NCBI GenBank assembly: GCA_024103495.1
Contig: JAGFIQ010000179.1
Coordinates: forward strand, 1 to 64,000
Length of the DNA: 64,000 nt
DNA from: Aridibacter famidurans
Lineage (GTDB): Bacteria; Acidobacteriota; Blastocatellia; Pyrinomonadales; Pyrinomonadaceae
Direction of reading: 5' to 3'
The position numbers and the translations under genes are program-made. Under the pieces are notes generated by a model. It was not told the DNA's origin. It saw only the letters and a program-made list of their open reading frames with translations, and searched no databases. Positions within the stretch are counted from its first letter, which is position 1. Each line of letters opens with the position of its first letter. Below are positions 58,943 to 63,357 of this stretch, piece after piece.

Positions 58943-59515
58943 CTATCTGAGTAATTCCTCGTCTTCCTCAGGCACGAACCGGTGCCAGTAATTCTCTACC
59001 GCCCTTTGAACGATCCTCCGGTCGCGGGTTTCAAGGTCCAACAGGATCGGTAACGCGTTCAAGAAAGAGCCGATCGCAGCCATTTGTTCATGGGTAAAAA
59101 CTGAGTAATTGGAACTGTAGGATTCCCAGCTGATTTGCTTGTCATTCTTCCTTGGATAGAGAAAGCTCAATGTCGATATGACCCTCATTGACGAAGAATC
59201 ATATTTGTCCAGCAGACGCAGCATTAACGCAGGGAGGTAGTATCTCTGGCCTTTGTCATACAGGAACACCATAGAAATGTGCTCGTCGTCCGGCTCTCTC
59301 GACCAGTCGATCTTCTCCCAATTGTCGATGACTCCGGCTGTCCTCAGCCTTTCCCATTCTCGACCGGAGACCTCATTACCTTCTTCATCGCACCCATAGT
59401 TACTAACCAGTATCTGTTGATGAAGGCTGTACCCTTCGCCGAGCTTCACGCCTTTGAACGCTTCCCGGATCCGCTTTTCAACCCTGTTCCTGAGTGCTCG
59501 CTTCTTCCAGTTCAT
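58943..59515 (-). CDS. DUF6714-like protein
   Basis: A 190-residue cytoplasmic protein. 'IREAFKGVKLGEGYSLHQQI' at the start, an 'REPDDEHISMVFLYDKGQRY' then 'YLPALMLRLLDKYDSSS' segment, and a C-terminal 'FTHEQMAAIGSFLNALPILL' fit my recollection of the DUF6714 family. Its members often occur near toxin-immunity or other accessory loci but have no known function. The base composition is less GC-rich than that of neighbouring core genes. The ATG at 59515 has no clear ribosome site; an in-frame GTG at 59530 would add five residues. Confidence 0.72.
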   Translation of the reverse strand: MNWKKRALRNRVEKRIREAFKGVKLGEGYSLHQQILVSNYGCDEEGNEVSGREWERLRTAGVIDNWEKIDWSREPDDEHISMVFLYDKGQRYYLPALMLRLLDKYDSSSMRVISTLSFLYPRKNDKQISWESYSSNYSVFTHEQMAAIGSFLNALPILLDLETRDRRIVQRAVENYWHRFVPEEDEELLR

Positions 59516-59667
59516 AGGAAAATCAACCACGAAAGCACACGAAGTATCACAAAGGGAGACCGGCAGTGCGGAAGCTAGTCCATGATCGCAGACACCTGCT
59601 CAGTCCTCAGTCCTTTCTTCTCAGTCCTCGAAGTAGCCCTCCCTGACGGTCGGGCTTCGGACACGAT
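59516..59667. repeat. Short phrase-repeat spacer
   Basis: It contains ACCACGAAAGCACACGAAGTATCACAAAGG (59528-59555), 'GACACCTGCTCAGTCCTCAGTCC' (59588-59610), a TCTTCTCAGTCCTCGAAGTAG junction and CCTCCCTGACGGTCGGGCTTCG (59636-59660). The last three elements occur again in the same order at 60510-60595, as a copy of about 80 bp. Confidence 0.65.
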
Positions 59668-60018
59668 CTACCCACGCTTTCTGATAAACTCGAGTTCTTC
59701 AATCAACCCGGGAAGATCGGAATCCAATCGTCCTGCTACAACAAAATCACGCGCTCTTTGGTAATGATCTGGGATCTCCTCACAGACAGAGACGGACCAA
59801 ACCTGCTCTCCCTTTGCTCGCTCTAAATCGCATAGCGGATCGACCTTCAAGAGGAGATATGCGCTTCTACCCTCTCGATCTCCTAACGGAGTCAAGCGAT
59901 ACACCTCATCCAGCCACCAATCGAGATCATCTTCGTCTAAGGCTTCTGCCTGCCAGCCTCTCTTCTCGATCTCGACAAGAATCTTGTTTCTGTCATTAGG
60001 TATTGCCAGGTATTTCAT
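59668..60018 (-). CDS. Hypothetical acidic protein, coupled to the TGA-containing gene
   Basis: A 116-residue soluble protein: MKYLAIPNDRNKILVEIEKR, then an acidic 'GWQAEALDEDDLDWWLDEVY' and 'ERAKGEQVWSVSVCEEIPDH', 'GRLDSDLPGLIEELEFIRKR'. No family recognised. Its ATG at 60018 overlaps the stop of the preceding frame by ATGA (60015-60018). It therefore depends on translation through that frame, including its second half beyond the internal TGA. This is a strong argument that the second half of the upstream gene is translated. Confidence 0.72.
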   Translation of the reverse strand: MKYLAIPNDRNKILVEIEKRGWQAEALDEDDLDWWLDEVYRLTPLGDREGRSAYLLLKVDPLCDLERAKGEQVWSVSVCEEIPDHYQRARDFVVAGRLDSDLPGLIEELEFIRKRG

Positions 60019-60413
60019 TCCTCACGCTCTAACGTGCCCACAACACAAGACGCGTGGCCATCCACTATGTCCCCTTCCTTCAATCTCGAAGGCGTCGGTT
60101 TCCAACCTCTCTCTAACCTCGCTTCAAGCAACTCGTCCGCCGTCGGTGTGTGGTCCCAGACGGCGACCGCCGTCACGGCTCCGAGTCAGGTGATGCCGTA
60201 AACGATTACGAGTCCGTCCTTCCAGGGCACGATCGCGTCGTGGGTGTACTCGTCCTGCACGATGACGTCCGACACAACCTGCTTCAGGGTGTCGCCTTGG
60301 GGTTGTTTGGCCGCCCACGCGAGCACCTTTGCAAGCGAGTCGTGTCCGGCTATCTCTCCCGTGATCGATCCGATCAAATCTTCGGGGCTTTCTGTTCTGT
60401 TTTCAACGCGCAT
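60015..60413 (-). CDS. Single gene interrupted by in-frame TGA: candidate selenoprotein (or nonsense mutation)
   Basis: From the ATG at 60413 the frame gives 75 residues (MRVENRTESPEDLIGSITGE ... WKDGLVIVYGIT), then TGA at 60188-60186. It continues in the same frame for 56 residues ('LGAVTAVAVWDHTPTADELL', 'EARLERGWKPTPSRLKEGDI', 'VDGHASCVVGTLEREE') to a TGA at 60017-60015 that overlaps the next start codon. The second half looks fully protein-like and has no plausible start of its own except GTG at 60176. Eleven nt after the internal TGA the mRNA can form GACGGC-GGUC-GCCGUC, a 6-bp stem with a G-initiated loop, at the distance found in bacterial SECIS elements. Selenocysteine insertion, a point mutation, or an error in the sequence are all possible. 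No family recognised. Confidence 0.6.
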
Positions 60414-60772
60414 TGGCAGAAGAAAGATTGAACCACGGAGAATCACAAAGAAACACGAAGGAAGACTTGCTGGGCCGAAGAAATTTCAGCTGCTGATCCA
60501 TGACCCGCGATCGCAGACACCTGCTCAGTCCTCAGTCCTTTCTTCTCAGTCCTCGAAGTAGCCCTCCCTGACGGTCGGGCTTCGGACACGCTCCGCCGCT
60601 ACGCGGCTGGATATTCGGTGGTGCCGATACCGTGGGTGGCGCCCTTCGGGCTTACCTACGGCTAAATGCACATGACCGCTGCGCGGTCGGCCATGTCCGT
60701 CGCTTGCGCTGCAGGTTCCGATTCTGCCCGTCGCTTGCGCTCCGGGTTCCGATTCATTGGTCAATGACCGCC
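60414..60772. repeat. Repeat-filled spacer
   Basis: Contents: an AACCACGGAGAATCACAAAG phrase (60431-60450); the 80-bp copy of 59588-59660 (60510-60595); CCGCCGCTACGCGGC (60593-60610); a variant composite with hairpin CCGTGGGTGGCGCCCTTCGG ... CCTACGGCTAA (60629-60665), then GACCGCTGCGCGGTC (60674-60690); and two copies of 'CCGTCGCTTGCGCTCCGG' (60698-60755). CATTGGTCAATG occurs at 60753-60765. Confidence 0.7.
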
Positions 60773-61285
60773 CTACCTCTGTACCGAGGCGTTAGCATAG
60801 GTGATCATCCTTGCGAAGTGGCTGGCGGGCAGTTTGGCTTCAACCGCGTCCTTGGGGCCCGGGTAAGGGTTATTGAAGTAAATATATCCCTGGCCCTCGT
60901 CGTCATACCGTTTCGCGACGACGATGTGATAAGAATCGCTGCTTATCTTCCTCGAAACCCAAAGCGGCCCTTTCTTCAGCACGGTGAGAAGCGTCTCGGC
61001 GCCGTCAGACAACCCGACGTCATACCAGCTGCGCTCCTGGTTGAAATGCTCGCCTTTCCATCCGTCAAGCCCGAGCGCGGTGGCGCACTTAAGATAGTCC
61101 TTATCGACGAGGCCGTTCTTCATTGCGTCCGCGAAATCGATCACGTTCGAGAGTTTGTCCTTGATCGAATTCGTGTTCAGGCCCTTGAATGTGTAGATCA
61201 TTTTGTACGACGCATACCAGCACTGCTGGAACGTTGCCTGCCCCATGCCGCCTGTCGGCACGTCGTGACTGATGTTGTCGGCCAT
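60773..61285 (-). CDS. Papain-like cysteine protease domain protein
   Basis: A 170-residue single-domain protein. The Cys nucleophile is probably C22 in 'TFQQCWYASYKMIY', preceded by a Gln (oxyanion) as in papain-like enzymes. The His is H120 in 'ISSDSYHIVVAKRYDDEGQG', and an Asn follows in 'YIYFNNPYPGP' (N138/N139). The order Q-C...H...N matches the papain_like_cys_pept/C39-like family. A stand-alone domain of this size can be a bacteriocin-processing peptidase or a secreted effector. No signal peptide is seen. AGGAAAACC precedes the ATG at 61285. Confidence 0.78.
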   Translation of the reverse strand: MADNISHDVPTGGMGQATFQQCWYASYKMIYTFKGLNTNSIKDKLSNVIDFADAMKNGLVDKDYLKCATALGLDGWKGEHFNQERSWYDVGLSDGAETLLTVLKKGPLWVSRKISSDSYHIVVAKRYDDEGQGYIYFNNPYPGPKDAVEAKLPASHFARMITYANASVQR

Positions 61286-61518
61286 AGGTTTTCCTCGCGA
61301 TCCGGATTTGGAAGTCGCCCCATTCTGTATCTGAAAGGAGCAGGAATCAAGGGGCGATTCAGTTCCAGGTTCCAGGTTCCAGGTTCAAAGTTCAAAGGCC
61401 AAGGTTCAAGGTTCAAGGTTCAAGGTTCAAAGAGACCTGCTCCCGCGTCGGGATTCTTTGAATCTTGAACCTTGAACCTTGAACCTTGAACCTGGAACTT
61501 TGAACCTGGAACCTGGAA
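61286..61518. repeat. Inverted GGTTCAA / TTGAACC arrays
   Basis: 61350-61430 is an array of GTTCCAG and GGTTCAA heptamers (about ten units). 61455-61516 is the same array inverted (CTTGAACC units, then CCTGGAAC). The two arms are complementary over roughly 60 nt, around a short GAGACCTGCTCCCGCGTCGG loop. The array starts immediately after lipA's stop (61519). Confidence 0.85.
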
Positions 61519-62471: not shown

Positions 62472-62810
62472 TTACGAGAGCCGCGATGTAACTTTGCCTT
62501 TTATGTATTCTAACGAAACGGGCCCGAATCTGCGACTGTCGGTGCTTTCGTCCGAATTGTCGCCGACAAGAAAGAACTTGCCGTTGGCGTCGATGGCGGT
62601 GATGCGCTTCGCCATTTCCACGCTCTCTTTGAACGGATGCCGCGCGATCACCACGTCGCCGATACGGACCTGTGCCCCTTCTTCGACCAGCACTTCCTCG
62701 CCGTTCTTCAGGATCGGGGCCATAGAATCGCCCTCGATCCGATAGACCGTCCTCAGCCCGAGAACCAAAAGCGCCTTTTCATAAAGACCAGCCGAAGGGA
62801 TCTCGTTCAT
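62472..62810 (-). CDS. sodX: Nickel-superoxide-dismutase maturation peptidase (SodX, S26-type)
   Basis: A 112-residue signal-peptidase-like protein. The nucleophile is in 'RIEGDSMAPILKNGEEVLV' (Ser29), the general base Lys in 'EMAKRITAID' (about Lys68), and the 'GDVVIARHP' and 'FLVGDNSDESTDSRRFGPVS' segments are typical of S26 peptidases. It lies 85 nt after sodN, the usual partner, whose pro-sequence it is expected to remove. The start is not certain: an in-frame GTG at 62840 would add ten residues. It lacks a transmembrane anchor. Confidence 0.88.
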   Translation of the reverse strand: MNEIPSAGLYEKALLVLGLRTVYRIEGDSMAPILKNGEEVLVEEGAQVRIGDVVIARHPFKESVEMAKRITAIDANGKFFLVGDNSDESTDSRRFGPVSLEYIKGKVTSRLS

Positions 62811-62895
62811 ATCGTTCTCGGCGGAACCGACCTTAGACACGAATGAGCGGCGGGCGCGAGGCTCGCCGCTCAGATCCGGTTCGGTAGGGTCCGGT

Positions 62896-63357
62896 TCAGG
62901 ACGCGGTGTAGTACTCGACGTCGCGGTCCTTGGTGCCCCAGAAGATCCCGTGAATCTCCTCGATCGCATCCATAAGCTCTTCAGCGTGCTCTCTGCTGAC
63001 TTCGACCTTGCACGCCGAGCAAAGCTTGGCGGCCTTCCAGAACTTGTCGTGCAGGTCCGGATTGCTTTCAAGATGGACGGGCTTGAAGTAATCGGTCCAA
63101 AGAATAAGAAGCTCGTCCTTGGCGACTTGCGCCTGCTCTTCCTTGATGGCGATGTACCTCGACATCGTGTTCAGGTACGAGGCCATCGCTTTCGAGTCTC
63201 CGTCCGAAGGCGGTGTCAGATCGAGTATCTTCTTGGTCATCGAGAGCACGGCCTCGGCCGCGATCCTCGCGGAAGCCGGATCGTAAACGCCGCACGGCCC
63301 GTCGCAGTGAGCCTGCGCGATCTTGATATCCCTGTTCTTAATGAGCTTGTTTATCAT
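62896..63357 (-). CDS. sodN: Nickel superoxide dismutase
   Basis: A 153-residue Ni-SOD. A 16-residue pro-sequence (MINKLIKNRDIKIAQA) precedes the Ni-hook HCDGPCGVYDP, whose H17, C18 and C22 bind Ni after cleavage before H17. The rest is a four-helix bundle ('RIAAEAVLSMTKKILDL', 'DELLILWTDYFKPVHLESNP', 'AHAEELMDAIEEI'-type helix, 'CSACKVEV'). Two extra cysteines (CSAC, about 114-117) are not part of the hook. GAGGAGAAAC before the ATG is a strong ribosome site. It dismutates superoxide; sodX follows. Confidence 0.95.
   Translation of the reverse strand: MINKLIKNRDIKIAQAHCDGPCGVYDPASARIAAEAVLSMTKKILDLTPPSDGDSKAMASYLNTMSRYIAIKEEQAQVAKDELLILWTDYFKPVHLESNPDLHDKFWKAAKLCSACKVEVSREHAEELMDAIEEIHGIFWGTKDRDVEYYTAS

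What the first reader, a model, noticed from the sequence alone, without database searches (positions are those of the whole stretch)
60015..60413. In-frame TGA followed by a SECIS-like hairpin: candidate new selenoprotein
One reading frame runs from 60413 to 60015 with a single TGA at 60188-60186. The 56 codons after it look like real protein, and their stop overlaps the next gene's start (ATGA). That layout only makes sense if ribosomes traverse this region. Eleven nt after the TGA the mRNA can form GACGGC-GGUC-GCCGUC. In E. coli fdhF the SECIS stem also starts 11 nt after UGA and its apical loop carries GGUC. The stem could be chance in GC-rich coding DNA, and a simple nonsense mutation or sequence error is the rival explanation.
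Basis: partly seen in the sequence, partly recalled or inferred. Interest (0 to 1): 0.85.

Follow-up and report, generated by a model that had tools for sequence, protein, structure and literature searches.

The report
New selenocysteine-dominated bacterial selenoprotein family
The apparent stop codon in this small gene is very probably read as selenocysteine: about eighty relatives in several bacterial phyla keep the same in-frame TGA and a matching RNA hairpin, and together they form a selenoprotein family that I found in no catalogue, library of solved structures, or paper I could search.

Summary
The frame 60413..60015 (minus strand) has one TGA at 60188-60186 and then 56 codons, with a perfect 6-bp hairpin (60174-60159, loop GGUC) 11 nt downstream. 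Of 81 non-redundant full or partial close homologues (Acidobacteriota, Myxococcota, Gemmatimonadota, Planctomycetota and others), 80 have TGA at exactly this column and one has Cys. Two distant families with no TGA have Cys there. The hairpin covaries at synonymous third positions: among 56 genes that all encode TAVAV, pair 12-27 has the highest mutual information of 153 wobble pairs, reached by 0 of 20000 permutations. The close Cys homologue has lost the hairpin. A 15-gene subgroup uses a second hairpin 6 nt further on, also supported by covariation. selA, selB, tRNA-Sec and selD are in the genome, and its selD itself carries a TGA. The segment after the TGA is under purifying selection. No Pfam, NCBIfam or PDB match exists. 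A confident AlphaFold model (pLDDT 93) has no Foldseek match at E<=0.001. The 2026 review's 119 selenoprotein families do not include it. Biochemical function is inferred only: a stand-alone selenol/thiol oxidoreductase or peroxidase. No direct proof of selenium insertion exists.

The parts
60015..60413 (-). Selenoprotein gene: ATG at 60413-60411, 75 codons, Sec-TGA, 56 codons, stop TGA at 60017-60015; 132 residues with Sec
   Evidence: alignment of 63 homologues; purifying selection on both sides of the TGA against L015: dN/dS about 0.13 before and 0.10 after
60186..60188 (-). In-frame TGA read as selenocysteine (residue 76, motif [D/G]-x-T-U-L-G)
   Evidence: TGA in 80 of 81 non-redundant close homologues and Cys in one; Cys in distant families
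60159..60174 (-). Proximal bacterial SECIS hairpin GACGGC-GGUC-GCCGUC (6 bp plus a covarying G-C across the loop), 11 nt after the TGA
   Evidence: covariation 0.303 against 0.115 in shuffles, 0/500; loop closing pair G-C/A-U covaries; wobble-pair mutual information; 58/80 pass the bSECIS rules against 16.4 expected
60249..60254 (-). Invariant Asp54-Glu55 (QDEYTHD motif), candidate active-site acids
   Evidence: 63/63 in A1
60045..60047 (-). Cys123 (GHAxC), possible resolving cysteine
   Evidence: Cys in 51/63 homologues; role inferred
59668..60018 (-). Downstream ORF (116 aa, no family match) overlapping the stop by ATGA; not part of the conserved unit
   Evidence: no counterpart downstream in L015

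Best explanation
The gene encodes a small (about 125-132 aa), probably cytosolic selenoprotein of a family I could not find described. Shown by comparative genomics: the in-frame UGA is conserved as a coding position, and an mRNA hairpin starting 11 nt after it is maintained by compensatory changes. Inferred from the established bacterial pathway: SelB carrying GTP and Sec-tRNA(Sec) binds the GGUC-loop hairpin and delivers Sec at the UGA, while termination competes. Inferred function: Sec76 lies in the turn of a beta-hairpin after an almost invariant Thr and acts as the reactive selenol of a stand-alone redox enzyme, most likely a peroxidase-type or thiol/selenol reductase. Asp54/Glu55, Trp86, Arg99 and Trp104 would shape the site, and Cys123, where present, would resolve the oxidised selenium. 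I put Sec insertion at about 0.95 and the redox-enzyme assignment at about 0.5; the substrate is unknown. The confidence given below is for the selenoprotein claim.
For: Same-column TGA in 80 of 81 non-redundant close homologues from unbiased searches whose query had X at that site. Conserved protein on both sides with real stops 50-60 codons later and low dN/dS on both sides. Sec/Cys pairing: Cys in L004 and in two distant families; profile-profile 97.4%, E 1e-11, with the Sec column on Cys. SECIS covariation and loss of the hairpin in the Cys form. selA, selB, tRNA-Sec and selD present, selD itself with a TGA. In Myxococcota selA is in 14/15 carriers and 24/50 non-carriers.
Against: No experiment shows selenium insertion. 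One carrier genome (G552) has no selA match, which could be a gap in the assembly. G788 has a 4-nt deletion at the Sec codon, so the gene can decay. The window gene has no clear ribosome-binding site. The redox function rests on Sec chemistry and conservation alone: no fold match, no conserved operon, and Cys123 absent in 12 of 63.
Confidence: 0.93

Rival explanations
1. Nonsense mutation, pseudogene or sequencing error in this one genome.
For: The genome is a fragmented assembly (188 contigs, 93% complete), and a lone TGA would look the same.
Against: The same TGA is at the same codon in about 80 genomes, several of them finished genomes or cultured strains such as Nannocystis and Limnoglobus. 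dN/dS after the TGA is as low as before it.
Confidence: 0.01
2. The TGA is a genuine regulated or leaky stop: near-cognate readthrough (UGA followed by C is a leaky context) gives a short form and a long form, without selenocysteine.
For: TGA is followed by C in 63 of 80 genes, and the long extension is conserved.
Against: Replacement at the column is by Cys only. The downstream hairpin covaries and fits the SelB-type SECIS, and the Cys form loses it. The residues around the TGA form one continuous high-confidence fold with Sec in a hairpin turn.
Confidence: 0.04
3. TGA is a sense codon in these organisms (reassigned code, for example Trp).
For: None found.
Against: Many members, the window gene included, also use TGA as the terminal stop. 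Homologues have Cys, never Trp, at this site.
Confidence: 0.005

Closest known systems
E. coli fdhF SECIS / bacterial SECIS model (PMC13188914)
   Same: The stem starts 11 nt after UGA, the apical loop is GGUC with a covarying closing pair, and spacing and stem length fit the published constraints.
   Different: No bulged U in the proximal stem, and the loop sits 1 nt closer to UGA than in fdhF (fdhF details from memory). A 15-gene subgroup uses a different hairpin 6 nt further on.
Known prokaryotic selenoprotein families (119 in PMC13188914 Table 1)
   Same: Single Sec, Cys-containing relatives, SECIS immediately downstream.
   Different: No listed family matches by Pfam or NCBIfam model or by motif. 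[quoted passage not shown] No thioredoxin-fold match.
Unnamed Cys family in Myxococcota and Acidobacteriota (A3, QGEFHHD...TNCNGGVKEV; L097, L099-L111, L126)
   Same: Predicted helix-helix-strands-turn-strand-helix core with Cys at the Sec column; profile-profile probability 97.4%.
   Different: Only about 22% identity, a different C-terminal half (HWFDPC...DARSE...GGGW), no TGA and no hairpin. It was itself unmatched in Pfam (4 members scanned).

Membership tests
Bacterial selenoprotein | In-frame UGA conserved as a coding position across homologues | tested here: met
   80 of 81 close homologues, same column
Bacterial selenoprotein | Cys-containing homologues aligned at the Sec column | tested here: met
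   L004 Cys; distant families A3 and L131/L132 Cys
Bacterial selenoprotein | SECIS hairpin just downstream of UGA meeting the published model | tested here: met
   Window gene passes; 58/80 pass against 16.4 expected; covariation
Bacterial selenoprotein | Genome encodes selA, selB, selC (tRNA-Sec) and selD | tested here: met
   G000: selA 531 bits, selB 400 bits, tRNA-Sec 73 bits, selD 356 bits
Bacterial selenoprotein | Selenium is actually incorporated | not testable with these tools
   Needs 75Se labelling or mass spectrometry
Any catalogued selenoprotein family (Pfam/NCBIfam models, 2026 review list) | Match to a family model or listed motif | tested here: not met
   No significant Pfam or NCBIfam match for any of 63 members (best NCBIfam E 0.041, best Pfam E 0.008, scattered single hits); not in Table 1
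Thioredoxin-fold selenoproteins | Thioredoxin fold and CxxU/UxxC-type motif | tested here: not met
   No Foldseek PDB match at E<=0.001; motif is TTULG with no Cys at +3 or -3

The most novel reading that the evidence does not exclude
This is an undescribed selenoprotein family in which Sec, not Cys, is overwhelmingly the rule. It has a fold with no solved counterpart and a SECIS that exists in two alternative positions within one family. If so, it performs chemistry for which Cys is a poor substitute. Discovery methods that require close Cys homologues, such as deep-Sep (PMC12013277), would be expected to miss it.
Probability: 0.6. Interest if true: 0.8.

Novelty: new member of a known kind. 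Interest (0 to 1): 0.73.

Why it matters
New selenoprotein families are usually found through abundant Cys relatives. This one has almost none close by, occurs in at least four phyla including cultured myxobacteria, and appears to have a new fold, so it points to a blind spot in selenoproteome surveys. It also gives a testable case of a Sec-preferring enzyme. The two SECIS positions within one family show how a SECIS can move while the protein is kept.

Tried and rejected
Sequence error or pseudogene, code reassignment and plain readthrough were considered and rejected (see rivals). Significance from the single hairpin was rejected: 42% of synonymous recodings also pass. The ATGA overlap was rejected as evidence. 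A conserved operon partner was sought by all-against-all comparison and by simple gene calling, with none found. PDB sequence, Foldseek PDB and viral for the Sec model, and Foldseek PDB for the Cys-family model gave nothing. Rfam gave only chance hits. Phage and plasmid collections had no homologue. The tree does not place the Cys form L004 firmly, so the direction Sec to Cys is not shown. Deng et al. 2026 (groundwater genomes, cited in PMC13188914) lists further candidates that I could not read, so prior mention there is not excluded.

Full report
OBSERVATION. The minus-strand frame 60413..60015 has one internal TGA (60188-60186) followed by 56 codons. Its terminal TGA overlaps the next ATG. 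The hairpin GACGGC-GGUC-GCCGUC lies at 60174-60159. The stated coordinates and spacing are right.

HOMOLOGUES KEEP THE TGA. I searched with X at the TGA so that neither Sec nor Cys was favoured. In 396 genomes of the window's phylum, 14 had the gene: 13 with TGA and one (G026, L004) without. A scan of about 85,000 species genomes gave 63 loci, all with TGA, in Acidobacteriota, Myxococcota, Gemmatimonadota, Planctomycetota and one Bacteroidales assembly. A profile search of 284 genomes of the Nannocystis phylum gave 15 strong hits, all with TGA. After removing duplicates, 80 close homologues (including one partial) have TGA at exactly the same column and one has Cys. The frame runs on for about 50-60 codons to a genuine stop in nearly all of them. 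One planctomycete copy (G788) has lost 4 nt exactly at the Sec codon.

THE PROTEIN IS REAL ON BOTH SIDES. Alignment A1 (63 sequences) has the invariant residues D54, E55, Sec76, P90, L96 and G119, and the near-invariant T75, G78, W86, R99, G103 and W104. Against the 80%-identical L015, dN/dS is about 0.13 before and 0.10 after the TGA.

SEC/CYS PAIRS. L004 has Cys at the column. The profile also found two distant families without TGA: A3 (QGEFHHD...TNCNGGVKEV; 15 members, mostly Myxococcota) and a planctomycete pair (VATCSG/AVTCDG), all with Cys at the Sec column. Profile-profile comparison of A1 with A3 gives 97.4% probability, E 1e-11. The two AlphaFold models share the order helix-helix-strands-turn(U/C)-strand-helix.

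SECIS. In 80 TGA genes the 6-bp stem has a covariation score of 0.303 against 0.115 in shuffles (0/500) and at most 0.127 when slid. The pair across the loop (G-C to A-U) covaries too. The cleanest test uses the 56 genes that all encode TAVAV, where only third positions are free. Positions 12 and 27 after the TGA switch between G-C and C-G with mutual information 0.856; the next best of 153 wobble pairs is 0.41, and 0 of 20000 permutations reach it. Third positions 15, 18, 21 and 24 inside the hairpin have entropy 0.26-0.43 bits, against 1.1-1.9 elsewhere. 58 of 80 genes meet the published model against 16.4 expected from synonymous shuffles. Permutations do not remove relatedness between sequences, but the slid controls do and agree. 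The Cys homologue L004 and the distant Cys families do not form the hairpin.

A SECOND SECIS POSITION. A 15-gene subgroup (Kofleriaceae-like, Corallococcus, and others) lacks the proximal stem (48.9% of cells paired, no covariation). It forms a distal hairpin, GGUCUC-CGUGU-GGGACC, 6 nt further on: 94.4% paired, covariation 0/500 in shuffles, at most 62% when slid. Its energies are weaker than the published threshold, so this position is likely but less certain.

SEC MACHINERY. The genome G000 has selA (C51), selB (C72), tRNA-Sec (C174) and selD (C10). The selD gene itself carries a TGA, which I take as an internal positive control. All 13 TGA carriers tested in the first set have selB over cut-off. 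In the Nannocystis phylum, selA is present in 14 of 15 carriers and 24 of 50 non-carriers. Several genomes with the A3 Cys family lack a full selD.

FUNCTION. No Pfam or NCBIfam model, PDB sequence or PDB/viral fold matches, although the model is confident (pLDDT 93, pTM 0.87). There is no conserved neighbour and no phage or plasmid copy. A stand-alone redox enzyme using a Sec selenol is therefore the default inference. Cys123 (51/63) may resolve the oxidised selenium, but 12 members lack it. This step is inferred, not shown.

NOVELTY. The 2026 review lists 119 selenoprotein families, and none corresponds. [quoted passage not shown] The deep-Sep paper says its method may discard selenoproteins lacking Cys homologues and that all known ones seem to have them. 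This family, about 80:1 for Sec among close relatives, falls in that gap. A candidate list from groundwater genomes (Deng et al. 2026) could not be read.

Noticed in passing
window 60501-60610 and 59584-59668: A near-identical direct repeat (about 85 bp shared, 98.8%) flanks the selenoprotein gene plus the following ORF; shorter pieces recur elsewhere in the window.
   Followed up: partly
window 60773-61285 (-): Small ORF matching papain-like Peptidase_C70 (E 2.6e-8, above cut-off), conserved at about 62% identity in the same place in L015.
   Followed up: partly
window 58943-59530 (-): DUF6714 gene (E 2.7e-23), with no counterpart at this position in L015.
   Followed up: partly
window 62896-63357 (-) and 62472-63071 (-): Nickel superoxide dismutase-like ORF (HCDGPCG near the N terminus) next to a signal-peptidase-like ORF; recognised by eye, not searched.
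   Followed up: no
L097, L099-L111, L126: Uncharacterised Cys family (TNCNGG ... HWFDPC ... DARSE ... GGGW) with no Pfam match in the 4 members scanned.
   Followed up: partly
L013, L014, L045-L047, L054, L056, L057, L059, L060, L062, L063, L067, L068, L072: Subgroup with the SECIS hairpin shifted 6 nt downstream, including compensatory changes at non-synonymous positions in L072.
   Followed up: yes
G565 contig C71: selA lies about 3.3 kb from the selenoprotein gene in this genome.
   Followed up: no
window about 61380-61500: Runs of GGTTCAA-type short repeats upstream of the peptidase ORF.
   Followed up: no
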